Below, in pieces: positions 7,312 through 35,357 of a stretch of DNA of 37,859 nt. This DNA is from Myxococcales bacterium. GTDB taxonomy: Bacteria; Myxococcota_A; Polyangia; GCA-2747355. The notes under the pieces are model-generated. The model made no database searches. It was not told where the DNA came from and saw nothing but the letters and a program-made list of their open reading frames with translations. The DNA is taken from NCBI GenBank assembly GCA_020431405.1, contig JAGQIK010000009.1, forward strand, positions 1 to 37,859. Direction: 5' to 3'. Made by a program: the position numbers and the translations under genes. Each line of letters begins with the position of its first letter. Position 1 is the stretch's first letter.

Positions 7312-9204
7312 ATGGCGAGGAAGCGCAAGCGCAGGCGAACCACCGACGCCTCGGCAGCCCCCGACGAGGGCGTGCTCGTCATCGACGCCGAGCTGCCCGA
7401 GGGCGACGAGACCCTCGAGACGGCCGACTTCGAGGCGCTGCTCGAGCCTGCCGAAGCCCCCGGCGGCCCCGAGATGTACGACATCGTCGACGAGCTCGAA
7501 GCTGGCTCGGTGCCATTGGTGGACGAGGACGAGGAGACGGCCGCCGCGGCGGCGCAGGCCGAGGCCGAGATGGAGACGCCGCGGCTGCTGATCGCCATCG
7601 CCAGCGGCAAAGGCGGCGTGGGCAAGAGCCTGCTGGCGGCCAACATCGGCATCTACCTGGCGCAGCTCGGGCGCAAAGTCGTGCTCGTCGACGGCACCCT
7701 CGGCGCCGGCAACCTGCACACGATGTTGCAGGTAGACAGCCCCGACGTGTCGCTGGGCGACTTCTTCTCGCGCGACGTCGATCATCTGCGCGACGTGGTG
7801 GTCAGCACGCCGTTCGCCGGGCTGGGGCTGATCTCGGGCGTCGATGACGGCGTCACCGCCGCCAACCCGCGGCCGGCGCAAAAGAACCGCCTGCTGACGC
7901 AGCTCAGGCAGCTCAACACCGAGTACGTCATCGTCGATCTGGCGCCCGGCTGCGGCTTCAACGTCGTCGACATGTTCATCGCCGCCGACCTGCACGTGGT
8001 GGTGACGCACCCCGAGCCGACGGCCATCGAGAGCGCCTTCCGTCTCATCAAGTGCGCCTTCATGCGCAAGCTGCGCGCACTCGACAGCGCCAAGCCGCTG
8101 CTCGCCGAGATCCCCAAGGTGCCGCGCGGCATCCCATCGCCGCGCGAGCTGCTCGAGCTCGCCGGCGGCCGCGAAGCGCTGCGCGACGTGATCCGCGAGG
8201 CCATGGGCGACTTCAAGCCGCGCCTCGTCGTCAACGGCACGCGCACGCGTGAAGACCTCGAGCTCGGCCCCGCGCTGACCGTCGTCGGCCGTCGCCACCT
8301 CGGCTTGCCGCTCGACTACCTCGGCTATCTCGAGCACGACGACGCGGTGGGCGTCTCGGTGCGCCGCCGCCGCCCGCTGCAGGTCGAGTTTCCCGAGGCC
8401 AAGGTCAGCAAGGACATCGATCGCGTGGCGCGCCGCCTGCTCGGGCTCGAGAGCCACGAAAACCCGGCCTGCGCGCAGCTGCCAAAGACGCTCGAGCAGC
8501 AGAGCCACTACGAGCTGCTCGGTCTGCACCCCGGCGCCACCGAGCCCGAGATCCGCCGCGCGCACCGCCACGTGCGGCGCCTCTATCACGCGCAGTCCAA
8601 CGCCATCTTCGGCATCGTCTCGCCGGCGCACCTCGAGGCCGTGCACGAACGCATCGAGCTGGCCTACGCCACGCTGATCGATCCCGAGAAGCGCGACACG
8701 TACAGCCGTTCGTTGTTTCCCGACGGCCAGTGGCCCGAGCCATCGCAGATCCCGCCCGCCGACGCGGTGCCGCACGCAGCGCCGACGACGGCGACGTTGC
8801 GCCCGCACGTGCGCCGCGTCACCGGGCCGATGCCGCGCGCTGCGACGTCGCCGACCAACAACGAGCACGGCGACACCCTCGGCGAGCTGGTCGACGCCGA
8901 AGCGCGCCGCGCCAGCGGGCTCGAGCTGGTGGTGCAGACGCCCGACATGCCGCACTGGGGCGAGGACACCGAGTTTACCGGCGACCTGCTGCGCAAGATC
9001 CGCGAGGCCTGCGGCGTCGACCTGCGCGACGTCGCCGACCAGACGAAGATCTCGCTCAACTACCTGCGCGCCATCGAGACCGAGGACTGGAGCAGCGCCC
9101 CGGCGCCGGTCTACCTGCGCGGCTTCGTCAAGGCGATGGCGCGCTGTCTGCGCCTGCCGCCCGACCAGGTCGCGCGCACGTACATGGCGCGCTTCCCGTC
9201 ATAG
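7312..9204 (+). CDS. MinD/ParA-like ATPase fused to a J-like domain and a RodZ-like HTH domain
   Basis: 630 residues from ATG 7312 (a GTG lies one codon earlier; AGGA at about 7297 suits either). After an acidic N-terminus, residues ~95-390 form a MinD/FlhG-type P-loop ATPase: deviant Walker A SGKGGVGKS with Lys105, Walker B-like YVIVDLAPG, and HVVVTHPEPTAIESAF. Where MinD has DxDxG, this protein has D127-G-T129, so the second Asp is replaced by Thr. Residues ~408-465 resemble a J domain (HYELLGLHPGATEPEIRRAH) but HPD reads H426-A-Q. Residues ~555-630 match the RodZ-type Cro/C1 HTH (LLRKIREACGVDLRDVADQT; PVYLRGFVKAMARCLRL). No membrane helix follows. A role in positioning or cell organisation is inferred from the family. 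Confidence 0.88.
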   Translation: MARKRKRRRTTDASAAPDEGVLVIDAELPEGDETLETADFEALLEPAEAPGGPEMYDIVDELEAGSVPLVDEDEETAAAAAQAEAEMETPRLLIAIASGKGGVGKSLLAANIGIYLAQLGRKVVLVDGTLGAGNLHTMLQVDSPDVSLGDFFSRDVDHLRDVVVSTPFAGLGLISGVDDGVTAANPRPAQKNRLLTQLRQLNTEYVIVDLAPGCGFNVVDMFIAADLHVVVTHPEPTAIESAFRLIKCAFMRKLRALDSAKPLLAEIPKVPRGIPSPRELLELAGGREALRDVIREAMGDFKPRLVVNGTRTREDLELGPALTVVGRRHLGLPLDYLGYLEHDDAVGVSVRRRRPLQVEFPEAKVSKDIDRVARRLLGLESHENPACAQLPKTLEQQSHYELLGLHPGATEPEIRRAHRHVRRLYHAQSNAIFGIVSPAHLEAVHERIELAYATLIDPEKRDTYSRSLFPDGQWPEPSQIPPADAVPHAAPTTATLRPHVRRVTGPMPRAATSPTNNEHGDTLGELVDAEARRASGLELVVQTPDMPHWGEDTEFTGDLLRKIREACGVDLRDVADQTKISLNYLRAIETEDWSSAPAPVYLRGFVKAMARCLRLPPDQVARTYMARFPS

Positions 9205-9353
9205 CAGCCGGCGCGGCCGTGCAAACAACAGTGCGCGTATTTCGGTCGGTGTGCTAGCCGGCGCGCGCGCTGGTCGCGATCCGCACGCGATCATCGTCTC
9301 GCGCACAAACGACCGAGATCACGACCGACAGCGCTGGATCCTCCTTCGGCACA

Positions 9354-9390
9354 GCCGTTGCTCTAACGGCGAGCGCGACTCTCAAGGAGG
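9354..9390 (+). promoter_or_regulatory. leader hairpin and strong ribosome-binding site
   Basis: A perfect 6-bp stem (GCCGTT 9354-9359 / AACGGC 9365-9370) precedes AAGGAGG at 9384-9390, which sits 7 bases before ATG 9398. This Shine-Dalgarno site decides the start, since the frame is open back to 9251. It is one of only three near-perfect sites in the window. Confidence 0.6.
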
Positions 9391-9397
9391 ATTAGAG

Positions 9398-9946
9398 ATG
9401 AACCCGACGCTACTTCGTCGACTCGCTATCACAGGGACGCTCGCCACCTTGCTGGTGATGGGCACGATCACGACTTCGCACGCGGAGCCGACGCGTGGTC
9501 GCAGCCTTCGCGGGCGCGCCACGCGCACGCTGCGCCGTGGCCTTCGCAACGGCCGCAGCTTCATGCGCCAGCACAAGGGCAAGATCATCGTCGGCGGCGC
9601 GGCGGCGCTCGGCTTCGCCGTCGGCACGGCGGGCATCGGACCGACCGCTGCCTTCGTCGGCGGCGCGCTGGTCGGCGCGGCCAAGGTCGTCGGCGCCGTC
9701 GCCGCGACCAAGATCTCGCTCGGCGGCGTCGCTGCCGGACTCGCCGCTGGACGCGCAGCGCACGTCGTGTCGAGCAAGCCGCAAGGCACCAGCGCCTTCA
9801 AGGCGCTCAAGAACGACGCGAAGCACAACTGGTTCGGCTTGAAGGGCCTCTTCAGCCGCGGCAACAGCCATCAACAGGCGCCCGCCGCGGTCGTGCCGCA
9901 GGCCGAGCACGTCGGCGCGCCCATCGACGTCGCGCCGCACCAGTAG
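9398..9946 (+). CDS. small exported Arg-rich, Gly/Ala-zipper protein (paralogue 1)
   Basis: 182 residues with a Sec signal peptide (residues 1-29, hydrophobic core ITGTLATLLVMGTITTSHA, cleavage after SHA). The mature part starts very basic (GRSLRGRATRTLRRGLRNGR), then has about 70 residues of Gly/Ala/Val-rich, weakly hydrophobic sequence with glycine-zipper spacing (IIVGGAAALGFAVGTAGIGP; FVGGALVGAAKVVGAVAATK), then a short conserved tail, FKALKNDAKHNWFGLKGLFS. The tail and an ATK(I/L) block recur in the protein encoded at 11560-12231, so the two are paralogues. No known family is recognised. A periplasmic or outer-membrane-associated structural or membrane-active role is possible. It converges on the His-Cys lipoprotein gene with 23 bases between stops. 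Confidence 0.8.
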   Translation: MNPTLLRRLAITGTLATLLVMGTITTSHAEPTRGRSLRGRATRTLRRGLRNGRSFMRQHKGKIIVGGAAALGFAVGTAGIGPTAAFVGGALVGAAKVVGAVAATKISLGGVAAGLAAGRAAHVVSSKPQGTSAFKALKNDAKHNWFGLKGLFSRGNSHQQAPAAVVPQAEHVGAPIDVAPHQ

Positions 9947-9973
9947 TAGCGAGCGCTAGATCGATCGCGCTAC
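9946..9973. terminator. possible bidirectional hairpin between convergent genes
   Basis: GTAGCG (9946-9951) pairs with CGCTAC (9968-9973) around a self-complementary AGCGCT. It sits between the stops of two converging genes but has no T run, so only a weak call is possible. Confidence 0.25.
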
Positions 9974-11277
9974 GGCCGAGGCGGCGACCACGCGTTGTCG
10001 CGCACGCCGGCTGCACCGTACAGCACGCCTCGGTCCATGGCGTCCATCGCCTTGACGATCGAGAGCCAGTCCGGCGCGTCGGCGTCGCGGCCCGCGTTGA
10101 CCGCTTCGATGCCGGTGAGCAGGCGGCGGATCAGCGGCTCGAAAGTGCGCGCCGAGTACGAGACCCAGCCCGACTCGACGTTGGCGAGGAAGTCGGACGT
10201 CTTCCAGCCGGTGGGATCGCTGTCGGGTGACAGCTGCGCCTTGGCGCGGAACACCTGCCGCGCGTAGTAGCTGTAGTTGCGGCAGCTGTTCATCGAGATG
10301 ATCTGGTAGTCGCTGCGGTAGGCGCTGACCTCGGTGAGGTAGTCGGTGGTGCCGTAGCTCGAGTGGCCGTGATAGAAGACGAGCTGGTACTCGCCGAGCA
10401 CCTCGTGGAAACGATAGGCGCCGGGATAGAGATCGATCTCGATCTCGACCCCATCGCCGGCGAGCGTGTAGCGCTTGACGCCTCGCTCGAGCTCGGTGGG
10501 CTCGAGCCCGAGGCGGCTCTCCATCACGTTGACCAGCGTGTCGTGGGCCTCGCCAGCGAGCACCGCCGCGCGAAAGCCCTTCTTGCCGGCGCCACGGTCG
10601 CCGAGAAGCTGGTCGTACTCGGGCCACGCGGGCTTCTGCACGTGCACGCGCAGCAGCTTGATCTGCCCCTGCTGCATCTCGATCTTGCAGATCGGCTCGC
10701 CGTCGGCGTTCGTCTTGTCCGGCGCGAAGTAGTAGTAGTACTTGTAGTCGGCGAGGGCGTAGGGCGACCAGTCCTTGGCGCAGTCTTCGCCAGCGCGGCC
10801 GTAGACGTCGATGGGATCGAGTGGCAGCGGGATCAAAAACTCGCGCTCGGCGATCTGGTCGATGCTGGTCTTGGGCGCGCGGCCGTGGGTCTCGGCGACC
10901 ATGTCGATCTGCGCCCTGTAGCGCAGCGTCACCACGCCGTCGTTCTGCTCGGCGCTCAGCACCTCGGCGCTCTGCGCGAGCTGGTTCACGTGATAGCCGT
11001 GCGCCTTCATCGAGTTCTTTGCGAACTTGAGCTGATCGTCGATGAGCTCGAGCTGCAGCTTGGCGTTGGTGGCGAGATCTTCGTACCTGCCGCTGGCCGC
11101 GCGCACGATGGTCGACGTCAGCTCGCCGTCGATCTCGTAGGTCGTCGACGAGACCCAGGCCGTGTCGCTCTTGCCGCCGCCGCCGGTGTTGTTGCTGCTC
11201 GCGCCGTCACCAGATCCGCAGGCGGTCGCCGCTGTTGCTGCCAGCAGCAGGGTCGCCGGCCATCGAATCCATCTCAT
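9970..11277 (-). CDS. lipoprotein with gingipain/caspase-like (clan CD) His-Gly...Cys signature
   Basis: 435 residues from ATG 11277, chosen because GGAGTG precedes it and because it yields a proper lipoprotein signal: basic start, LLLAATAATAC, lipid-attached Cys20, then a Ser/Gly/Asn linker. The frame is open further upstream, but that extension would bury the signal. In the C-terminal half, VFYHGHSSYGTTDYL (His303-Gly304) is followed by YQIISMNSCRNYSYY (Cys332). A His-Gly then strand then Ser-Cys order with about 30 residues between is the dyad pattern of clan CD cysteine peptidases (gingipain C25, caspase-like). Overall family similarity was not recognised, so activity is inferred. It lies between two genes for paralogous exported proteins, possible substrates or partners. 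Confidence 0.8.
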   Translation of the reverse strand: MRWIRWPATLLLAATAATACGSGDGASSNNTGGGGKSDTAWVSSTTYEIDGELTSTIVRAASGRYEDLATNAKLQLELIDDQLKFAKNSMKAHGYHVNQLAQSAEVLSAEQNDGVVTLRYRAQIDMVAETHGRAPKTSIDQIAEREFLIPLPLDPIDVYGRAGEDCAKDWSPYALADYKYYYYFAPDKTNADGEPICKIEMQQGQIKLLRVHVQKPAWPEYDQLLGDRGAGKKGFRAAVLAGEAHDTLVNVMESRLGLEPTELERGVKRYTLAGDGVEIEIDLYPGAYRFHEVLGEYQLVFYHGHSSYGTTDYLTEVSAYRSDYQIISMNSCRNYSYYARQVFRAKAQLSPDSDPTGWKTSDFLANVESGWVSYSARTFEPLIRRLLTGIEAVNAGRDADAPDWLSIVKAMDAMDRGVLYGAAGVRDNAWSPPRP

Positions 11278-11358
11278 CACCACACTCCGTTCGCTCCCGA
11301 AGGCGCTCTCGTCAGTGCAAACAGCAGTCCGCGCGCAGGCGGGCGCCAAACGCACGAA

Positions 11359-11414
11359 AGCGCGTCGGAGACGCGCTGTGCAAAACGTCCCGCGGCCACT
11401 TACGTGGCCGCGGG
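11359..11414 (-). terminator. tandem hairpins, likely terminator after paralogue 2
   Basis: Read on the minus strand, a perfect 11-bp stem with a 4-base loop (CCCGCGGCCAC / GTGGCCGCGGG, 11414-11389) is followed by ACGTTTTG, then by a second perfect 8-bp stem (AGCGCGTC / GACGCGCT, 11377-11359). It lies about 145 bases after the stop at 11560 and about 80 bases before the lipoprotein start at 11277. It could end the first transcript or act in the second gene's leader. Confidence 0.6.
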
Positions 11415-11559
11415 TCTCTCGTAATTTCGAATCGGGGATCAGATAGCGGGGTGCGCGTGGTGGCGGCATCGCTTCCGCCGGTGGTCGAGGGGATTCCTCG
11501 ATGCCGCTATGTCTCCACGCACTGGGCGTCCGGCGATCGCCCTGCTGTCAGGCGACTGC

Positions 11560-12231
11560 TTACTGCTGCTGGTCGAAGTTCAGCTCGAGCTGCTGGTTGG
11601 CCGCCGGAGCCTTGTCCTTGCGACCGCTCCAGAGCGCCTTGAGGCCGAAGCCGCCCTTGGCGTCCGACTTGAACTGCTGCCACATGGTGTTGCCGTTGGC
11701 CTTCGCGCGCGCCTTGTACTTGGACGCGCCGTAGATGCCAGCGCCCGCGGCGACGGCGTGGCCGACGGTCAGCTTGGTGGCCATCACGGCGCCGATGGCT
11801 TTGCCGGTGGCGACGACGCCAGTGGCGACTGCGGTGGCGCCCGCGGCGAGGATCGGAGCGGCCTTCGCGGCGGCAGCGCCCACGACGGGGTTGGTCACGG
11901 CGAGGCCGAGGATCACGCCGCCGGCGATCGCTTTGCCCGGGTTCTTCGCGACCCAGTGCAGGCCGTCTTTGCCCTTCTGGACGATCTTGTTGCCGGCCGC
12001 TTTGAGCGTGCCTTTGATGCCGTGCTCGCCGACGAAGCTGCGAGCGTTGGAGATGCGATTGGAGACGTTGCTGCGCGCGCGGCTAAGGCCGCGGCCCATG
12101 CTCTGGCCCATGCTGCGCACGCGTCCGCGGAATCCGCCGCCGGCGAGGGCGGGGCCGCTGGTCACGACGAGTAGACCGAAGGTGGCGACGGTGGCGAGAA
12201 ACAGGCTCGTGCGATTCGTGCGGGTCGTCAT
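11560..12231 (-). CDS. small exported Arg/Lys-rich, Gly/Ala-zipper protein (paralogue 2)
   Basis: 223 residues from ATG 12231, fixed by AGGAGG at 12243-12238. Signal peptide residues 1-30 (SLFLATVATFGLLVVTSGPALA). The mature start is GGGFRGRVRSMGQSMGRGLS, then a basic helix-like stretch (KGTLKAAGNKIVQKGKDGLH), a long Gly/Ala-zipper hydrophobic region (AIAGGVILGLAVTNPVVGAA; ILAAGATAVATGVVATGKAI), and a tail FKSDAKGGFGLKALWSGRKD. Block order, the ATK block and this tail match the protein at 9398-9946, so they are duplicates that have diverged strongly. Same strand as, and upstream of, the His-Cys lipoprotein gene but separated by strong hairpins. Function unknown; the strong ribosome site suggests abundant product. 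Confidence 0.8.
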   Translation of the reverse strand: MTTRTNRTSLFLATVATFGLLVVTSGPALAGGGFRGRVRSMGQSMGRGLSRARSNVSNRISNARSFVGEHGIKGTLKAAGNKIVQKGKDGLHWVAKNPGKAIAGGVILGLAVTNPVVGAAAAKAAPILAAGATAVATGVVATGKAIGAVMATKLTVGHAVAAGAGIYGASKYKARAKANGNTMWQQFKSDAKGGFGLKALWSGRKDKAPAANQQLELNFDQQQ

Positions 12232-12352
12232 TGGAATCCTCCTCATTGCGACTCTGCGTGTGCATACAGCACGTTGCATGCCCAACTCGGATCCACCCCC
12301 GATCCCTTGAAATCACTACGAAAGCATCTGATGGTCAGTTCTTGGCCAGTGG

Positions 12353-13357
12353 CTATCGCGGTTGCCGATCGGCAGGCGCCGCTGCCGTCCGCGTGGCCGA
12401 TTTTGAACAGTGCAGTAGCCGGCGGCGGGCGATCGCGGCGGCCATCTGCAGCGCCGCGACCATGCTCTCGGGTCGCGCGACACCCCGGCCGGCGATATCG
12501 CGGGCGCTGCCGTGCGCCGGCGAGGTGCGCACGAACGGCAGGCCCAGCGTCACGTTCACGCCGTCGTCGCGATGCACCATCTTGAACGGGATCAACCCCT
12601 GGTCGTGGGTGCATGTCACCACGGCATGACAGCCGTCCTCGCGCACACGCGCGAAGAACGCGTCGGCGGGCAGCGGGCCAACCAGCTCGGCGCCCACGCC
12701 AGAGCGGCTCAGCTGCTCGCGCGCGGCAGCGATCTGCGGCGTCATGACGCGCTGCTCCTCGTCGCCGAGCATGCCGTCCTCGCCGGCGTGCGGGTTGAGC
12801 CCGGTGATCACCACCCGCGGCCGCGCCACGGCGAAGTCCTGCTGCAGCGCGCGCACGATCAATAGCAGCGTGGCGGCGATGTCGACCTCGGCGAGCGCCG
12901 CCGGTGCGCCGGCGAGCGGCACGTGCCCGGTGAGCGGCACCACGCGCAGCCACGGCCCGGCGAGCATCATCGCGTGCTCGCTGGCGCCGCCGCGCTGCGC
13001 CAGGTATTCGGTGTGGCCGGGAAACGCGAACCCGGCGGCGGCCGCCGCGCTCTTGGTGATCGGCGCCGTGCAGAGCGCGTCCGCCTCGCCGGCGAGCACT
13101 GCGTCTACCGCGCGCTCGAGCGCCCGCACCTGGCGCGCGCCAGCGCTCGGCTCGGCTGGGAGCTCGTCGTCGCAGTCGCGCAGCGTGGTGCCTGCCGGCA
13201 GCGTGAGGCCGAGCTGCGCCTCGAGCTCGGCAAACACGCGCGCGCTGCCGTAGACCGTGATCGCGCTCGCATCGAGGGCCGCGGCCTGCAGCGCGCGCAC
13301 CGTGATCTCGGGGCCGATGCCGGCCGGGTCTCCCATGCTGATGGCGATGCGCGTCAC
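12353..13357 (-). CDS. pdxA: 4-hydroxythreonine-4-phosphate dehydrogenase PdxA
   Basis: 334 residues, the usual PdxA length, from GTG 13357 with AAGGG about 8 bases upstream. It catalyses NAD-dependent oxidation of 4-phosphohydroxy-L-threonine in the DXP-dependent pyridoxal-phosphate pathway, giving the product that PdxJ uses. Family motifs: ISMGDPAGIGPEI at the N-terminus, CTAPITKSAAAAAGFAFPGHTEYLA (substrate and metal His), LTGHVPLA, ITGLNPHAGEDGMLG, CTHDQGLIPFKM and LPFVRTSPAHGSARDIAGRG. All metal-binding positions I can recognise are kept. The last residues (RLLHCSKSATRTAAAPADRQ) are a basic tail. Only 28 bases separate its start from the divergent DUF3108 gene, so the promoters must overlap or lie inside coding sequence. 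Confidence 0.95.
   Translation of the reverse strand: MTRIAISMGDPAGIGPEITVRALQAAALDASAITVYGSARVFAELEAQLGLTLPAGTTLRDCDDELPAEPSAGARQVRALERAVDAVLAGEADALCTAPITKSAAAAAGFAFPGHTEYLAQRGGASEHAMMLAGPWLRVVPLTGHVPLAGAPAALAEVDIAATLLLIVRALQQDFAVARPRVVITGLNPHAGEDGMLGDEEQRVMTPQIAAAREQLSRSGVGAELVGPLPADAFFARVREDGCHAVVTCTHDQGLIPFKMVHRDDGVNVTLGLPFVRTSPAHGSARDIAGRGVARPESMVAALQMAAAIARRRLLHCSKSATRTAAAPADRQPR

Positions 13358-31646: not shown

Positions 31647-35357
<3,711 letters not shown>

What the first reader, a model, noticed from the sequence alone, without database searches (positions are those of the whole stretch)
9398..12231. Paralogous exported Gly-zipper proteins around a clan CD-like cysteine peptidase lipoprotein
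Two small exported proteins share an Arg-rich start, long Gly/Ala-zipper segments and a common tail (FK..DAK...FGLK.L). They have near-perfect ribosome sites. Between them lies a lipoprotein with a His303-Gly...Cys332 dyad pattern like gingipains and caspases. None belongs to a family I recognise. The set could be a peptidase with its substrates, a surface-assembly system, or a membrane-active peptide system with its processing enzyme.
Basis: partly seen in the sequence, partly recalled or inferred. Interest (0 to 1): 0.75.

Follow-up and report, generated by a model that had tools for sequence, protein, structure and literature searches.

The report
Caspase-like surface lipoprotein with secreted pair
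A myxobacterium carries, at a spot where a related genome has nothing, a three-gene locus with one shared upstream DNA motif: a surface lipoprotein with a caspase-like predicted fold, from a widespread but unnamed family, and two sister secreted proteins found in no other genome searched.

Summary
The genes are real: GZ1 (9398-9946 +), lipoprotein (9970-11277 -), GZ2 (11560-12231 -). GZ1 and GZ2 are true paralogs, cationic and Ala/Gly-rich, but 'Gly-zipper' spacing does not exceed composition. The lipoprotein belongs to a family found in 91 of 379 Myxococcota genomes sampled, with no Pfam or NCBIfam model for its core. Its AlphaFold model (pLDDT 88.9) best matches clan CD proteins (RgpB, CHAT, separase, Kgp, caspase-7). 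The conserved dyad is His305/Cys332 (37/37), not His303. Relatives often end in P- or PPC domains, typical of secreted peptidases. The three genes do not co-occur elsewhere: the GZ tail is unique among 318 genomes, and no other lipoprotein neighbourhood examined has a GZ homolog. Two new facts still tie them together: the locus is absent between the same flanking genes in a same-order genome, and one 12-mer (TGYTGTWTGCAC) lies upstream of each gene, with no other exact copy in the window or in 1.2 Mb more of the genome (p about 1/6000). Most likely: a lineage-specific, co-regulated surface module of a caspase-fold cysteine peptidase and two secreted membrane-active proteins. Activity, substrate and function are inferred.

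The parts
9398..9946 (+). GZ1: 182-aa exported (signal peptide ending ..SHA), cationic Ala/Gly-rich protein
   Evidence: perfect AGGAGG site
9970..11277 (-). 435-aa lipoprotein (Cys20), caspase/haemoglobinase-type fold, conserved His305 and Cys332
10363..10365 (-). codon of His305 (motif Y-x-G-H-[SA]-x-x-G), presumed catalytic
   Evidence: invariant in 37 of 37; follows predicted strand 299-303
10282..10284 (-). codon of Cys332 (motif C-x2-[YF]-x-Y), presumed nucleophile
   Evidence: invariant in 37 of 37; follows predicted strand 325-330
11560..12231 (-). GZ2: 223-aa exported (signal peptide ending ..ALA) paralog of GZ1 with a longer basic N-terminal part
   Evidence: perfect AGGAGG site
9219..9230 (-). 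shared upstream motif TGTTGTTTGCAC, 167 nt before the GZ1 start, inverted relative to GZ1
11315..11326 (-). shared upstream motif TGCTGTTTGCAC, 37 nt before the lipoprotein start
12260..12271 (-). shared upstream motif TGCTGTATGCAC, 28 nt before the GZ2 start
11389..11414 (-). perfect 11-bp G+C-rich hairpin followed by ACGTTTTGC on the - strand; probable terminator of the GZ2 transcript
   Evidence: z -6.1
9205..12352 (.). extent of the three-gene locus, between a ParA-DnaJ-HTH_25 gene and pdxA; absent at the same place in genome G003

Best explanation
A lineage-specific, co-regulated cell-surface module. The lipoprotein is anchored (probably in the outer membrane) by Cys20 and is a cysteine peptidase of caspase/haemoglobinase (clan CD-type) fold using His305 and Cys332; this is shown only at the level of predicted fold and conservation. 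GZ1 and GZ2 are Sec-exported paralogs with a basic N-terminal part and hydrophobic Ala/Gly-rich segments that can insert into membranes (inferred from composition). The three genes are switched together through a factor that binds the TGYTGTWTGCAC site before each of them (inferred). The peptidase cleaves, trims or otherwise controls the exported pair at the cell surface (inferred, no direct evidence).
For: Fold: model pLDDT 88.9; rows 1-16 of the structural comparison are all clan CD (RgpB Z 10.5, SAVED-CHAT 10.5, separase 10.2, Kgp 8.4, procaspase-7 7.6, C11 7.5, metacaspase 7.4), the first unrelated row is 6.2. Dyad: H305 and C332 in 37/37, each just after the expected strand, the placement described for clan CD (PMC4357240). 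Secreted-peptidase architecture: P_proprotein domain in 15 and PPC domain in 9 of 37 homologs. Link of the three: empty site in G003 with flanks only 18 bp apart; 12-mer exact three times in the window, 0.00 expected, each upstream of one of the three genes; 0 exact and 1 one-mismatch copy in 1.22 Mb of the same genome; 1 of 6000 random distinct upstream triples as good.
Against: GZ1/GZ2 have no homolog elsewhere and no other lipoprotein of the family examined has a GZ neighbour, so an obligatory enzyme-substrate pair is not general. The residue after the conserved His is Ser/Ala instead of the usual Gly. Foldseek alone ranked small GTPases first. The GZ model is poor (pLDDT 44). The motif was found after the fact. 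The hairpin suggests that the genes are not one transcript.
Confidence: 0.4

Rival explanations
1. The lipoprotein is a general surface or predatory protease of a large Myxococcota family and has nothing to do with GZ1/GZ2, which are fast-evolving orphan exported proteins that happen to sit beside it.
For: Family in 91 of 379 phylum genomes with several paralogs per genome (6 in this one) and no conserved neighbourhood; GZ genes unique to this genome; probably separate transcripts.
Against: Shared 12-mer upstream of all three and nowhere else in the window; joint absence at the empty site in G003.
Confidence: 0.33
2. GZ1/GZ2 form a secreted antibacterial or self-lytic two-component membrane-active system and the lipoprotein protects the producer by degrading them, rather than activating them.
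For: Two paralogous cationic hydrophobic exported proteins (about 14% Lys+Arg, 3% Asp+Glu), strong ribosome sites, an anchored protease beside them, very restricted distribution.
Against: No similarity to any bacteriocin or toxin family at significant E-value; immunity by a protease would be unusual.
Confidence: 0.15
3. The lipoprotein has a caspase-like fold but is catalytically inactive (binding or scaffold role), as the atypical His-Ser/Ala replaces His-Gly.
For: Residue after His305 is Ser or Ala in all 37; some prokaryotic caspase homologs lack an intact dyad (PMC3501461).
Against: Both dyad residues are invariant over sequences down to about 20% identity; P/PPC domains typical of secreted peptidases.
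Confidence: 0.12

Closest known systems
Gingipains RgpB/Kgp (MEROPS C25, clan CD)
   Same: Extracytoplasmic bacterial cysteine peptidase fold; among the best structural matches of the model (Z 10.5 for RgpB, 8.4 for Kgp); His before Cys, each after a core strand
   Different: 12-14% identity over the structural alignment, no Pfam C25 match, anchored as a lipoprotein, G-H-[SA] instead of H-G
Metacaspases/orthocaspases and caspases (C14, clan CD)
   Same: Y-x-G-H and x-x-C signatures resemble Y-S-G-H-G ... D-x-C of metacaspases (recalled from memory); fold matches Z 7.4-7.6
   Different: Exported lipoproteins with P/PPC domains; no Peptidase_C14 profile match in any of 37 members at E 1
Separase and CHAT proteases (clan CD)
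   Same: Same core fold (Z about 10)
   Different: Intracellular, unrelated domain context, about 12% identity
Glycine-zipper and other small Ala/Gly-rich exported membrane proteins
   Same: Hydrophobic Ala/Gly-rich stretches after a signal peptide
   Different: No family match; GxxxG spacing not enriched; unique conserved tail K-x-DAK-x(2-3)-FGLK

Membership tests
Clan CD cysteine peptidases | Caspase/haemoglobinase alpha/beta fold | tested here: met
   AlphaFold model pLDDT 88.9; top 16 matches all clan CD, Z 7.2-10.5, 11 of them above 8. A predicted, not a solved, structure.
[quoted passage not shown]
   H305 after strand 299-303, C332 after strand 325-330, both 37/37; distance between side chains not measured
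Clan CD cysteine peptidases | Glycine adjacent to the catalytic His (PMC4357240); usually directly after it | tested here: inconclusive
   Gly304 directly before His305 is invariant; the residue after it is Ser/Ala
Clan CD cysteine peptidases | Thiol-dependent peptidase activity | not testable with these tools
   needs purified protein
Pfam catalytic families of clan CD (C11, C13, C14, C25, CHAT) | Profile match to the catalytic domain | tested here: not met
   none of 37 members matches any of these at E 1; no NCBIfam core match
Glycine-zipper proteins | GxxxG or small-xxx-small spacing beyond composition | tested here: not met
   counts within shuffles
Anti-phage defence proteins (PADLOC) | Profile match | tested here: not met
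   no match at E 1

The most novel reading that the evidence does not exclude
A new kind of bacterial surface system: a lipid-anchored caspase-fold peptidase that matures or controls two dedicated, co-regulated secreted membrane-active paralogs, acquired as a cassette in one myxobacterial lineage.
Probability: 0.3. Interest if true: 0.75.

Novelty: new variant of a known kind. Interest (0 to 1): 0.5.

Why it matters
It points to a widespread, unnamed family of exported caspase-fold lipoproteins in Myxococcota (predators with large secreted proteomes), with an unusual G-H-[SA] active-site motif and P/PPC partner domains. The locus offers a small, testable candidate for a peptidase with genetically linked secreted partners and a defined common regulatory site.

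Tried and rejected
First tail pattern was wrong: it did not match the window itself, so its zero count is void; replaced. Searches were translated one base off. Foldseek's own ranking (Arf/Rab GTPases, TM about 0.2) was set aside in favour of the realignment. The weak GZ2-like hit beside a lipoprotein in G026 proved to be an off-frame reading of a 660-aa phosphoesterase-like gene. Low E-value GZ hits in other genomes are short stretches of signal peptide or low complexity, without the tail. The GZ structure prediction is too poor to use. Named-genome scans with the window protein or broad alignments found nothing or could not run; one with a subgroup worked. A first significance test of the motif allowed overlapping regions and one used random genomic, mostly coding, DNA, where 10 shared columns are not rare (49 of 300); the clean test with upstream regions and base-weighted scores is. 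The whole genome could not be scanned for the motif, only about 11%. Side-chain geometry of the dyad could not be measured.

Full report
What is there. Three genes lie between a ParA-DnaJ-HTH_25 gene (7312-9204 +) and pdxA (12353-13357 -): GZ1 (9398-9946 +, 182 aa), the lipoprotein (9970-11277 -, 435 aa) and GZ2 (11560-12231 -, 223 aa). Both small genes have a perfect AGGAGG site, found before 45 of 911 called genes in a sample of the same genome.

The two small proteins. GZ1 and GZ2 are true paralogs. Their mature parts align with score 139, whereas 2000 shuffles that keep local composition reach at most 109. The conserved parts are K-x-x-GAV-x-ATK and the tail K-x-DAK-x(2-3)-FGLK-x-L. The tail, written as DNA, occurs exactly twice in 318 genomes of the class, both times here. 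Profile searches of the same genomes give only short low-complexity hits. They are about 35% Gly+Ala, 14% Lys+Arg and 3% Asp+Glu, with about three hydrophobic stretches after the signal peptide. The Gly-zipper spacing is not enriched over shuffles. No Pfam, NCBIfam, PHROG or PADLOC family matches significantly. The structure prediction is mostly helical but unreliable (pLDDT 44).

The lipoprotein. It has relatives in 23 of 59 related genomes by single-sequence search and, with a core profile, in 91 of 379 genomes of the phylum, with six matches in this genome. Named relatives are Myxococcota assemblies. In 37 aligned members, Cys166, Cys197, Pro219-Glu220, Gly266, Gly304-His305, Gly309, Tyr324, Cys332, Tyr337, Gly424 and Asn428 are invariant. 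No catalytic Pfam or NCBIfam family matches any member's core, but 15 carry a P_proprotein domain and 9 a PPC domain, domains usual in secreted peptidases (established knowledge). The AlphaFold model from this alignment has mean pLDDT 88.9. Realignment of Foldseek's candidates puts clan CD structures in the first 16 rows: RgpB 10.5, SAVED-CHAT 10.5, separases 9.1-10.2, mature gingipain R 8.6, Kgp 8.1-8.4, procaspase-7 7.6, C11 7.2-7.5, metacaspase 7.4; the first unrelated row is 6.2. Foldseek alone preferred small GTPases with low TM-scores. His305 follows strand 299-303 and Cys332 follows strand 325-330, the placement given for clan CD dyads (PMC4357240). That paper also notes a glycine next to the catalytic His in all families; here it stands before, and Ser/Ala after it.

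Do the three belong together? Not by co-occurrence: the neighbourhoods of 37 lipoprotein family genes vary and none has a GZ homolog. The closest relative of the lipoprotein is a paralog in the same genome (43%), also without GZ genes or the upstream motif. Two new observations favour a link. First, in a genome of the same order (G003) the same flanking genes stand 18 bp apart with nothing between them, in otherwise largely conserved gene order (11 window genes matched), so all three genes were gained or lost at one place. Second, TGYTGTWTGCAC occurs three times without mismatch in the window, once in the intergenic stretch upstream of each of the three genes (9219, 11315, 12260), against 0.00 expected. 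In 1.22 Mb of other DNA of the same genome there is no exact copy and one with a single mismatch. Among 6000 triples of distinct upstream regions of the same genome, one shares a 12-mer as informative. The motif was noticed after the fact, but this test looks for the best motif of each triple anew. The site is partly palindromic (GTGC-N5-GCAC at GZ2) and stands in reverse orientation at GZ1, so it looks like an operator rather than a promoter (inference). A perfect 11-bp hairpin (11389-11414, z -6.1) followed by four T probably ends the GZ2 transcript before the lipoprotein gene, so the genes are probably transcribed separately and joined by regulation.

Mechanism. Shown by computation: export signals, paralogy, predicted fold, invariant dyad, locus-specific shared motif, empty site. 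Inferred: peptidase activity, outer-membrane anchoring, membrane insertion of GZ1/GZ2, co-regulation, and cleavage or control of GZ1/GZ2 by the lipoprotein. The main rival is that the lipoprotein is a general surface protease of a large family and its neighbours are unrelated orphans.

Known or new. No paper found in the open-access library describes this lipoprotein family; prokaryotic caspase homologs in general are well known (PMC3501461). The library lacks many journals, so absence there is weak. The lipoprotein family is best called a new variant of clan CD-type peptidases; the three-gene module has no known counterpart that I could find, but its function is unproven.

Noticed in passing
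9219-9230, 11315-11326, 12260-12271: A 12-mer TGYTGTWTGCAC upstream of each of the three genes and nowhere else in the window; used in the argument, but the binding factor and any further targets in the genome are unknown.
   Followed up: partly
L088:1137-3680 (-): A lipoprotein family member of 848 aa carries a C-terminal stretch matching Peptidase_M1 (E 1.7e-17), apparently a fusion of two peptidase types.
   Followed up: no
window 7312-9204 (+): ParA-type ATPase fused to a DnaJ domain and a HTH_25 domain, with conserved gene order in related genomes.
   Followed up: no
window 31647-35357 (+): 1236-aa subtilase (Peptidase_S8) with FG-GAP repeats, another large exported peptidase in the window.
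   Followed up: no
L100, L109, L104, L073, L101, L103, L107, L099, L102: A distinct subgroup of the lipoprotein family with N-G-H-A-G-L-G and N-G-C-D-T motifs; L104 of it has a PPC domain rather than a P-domain.
   Followed up: partly
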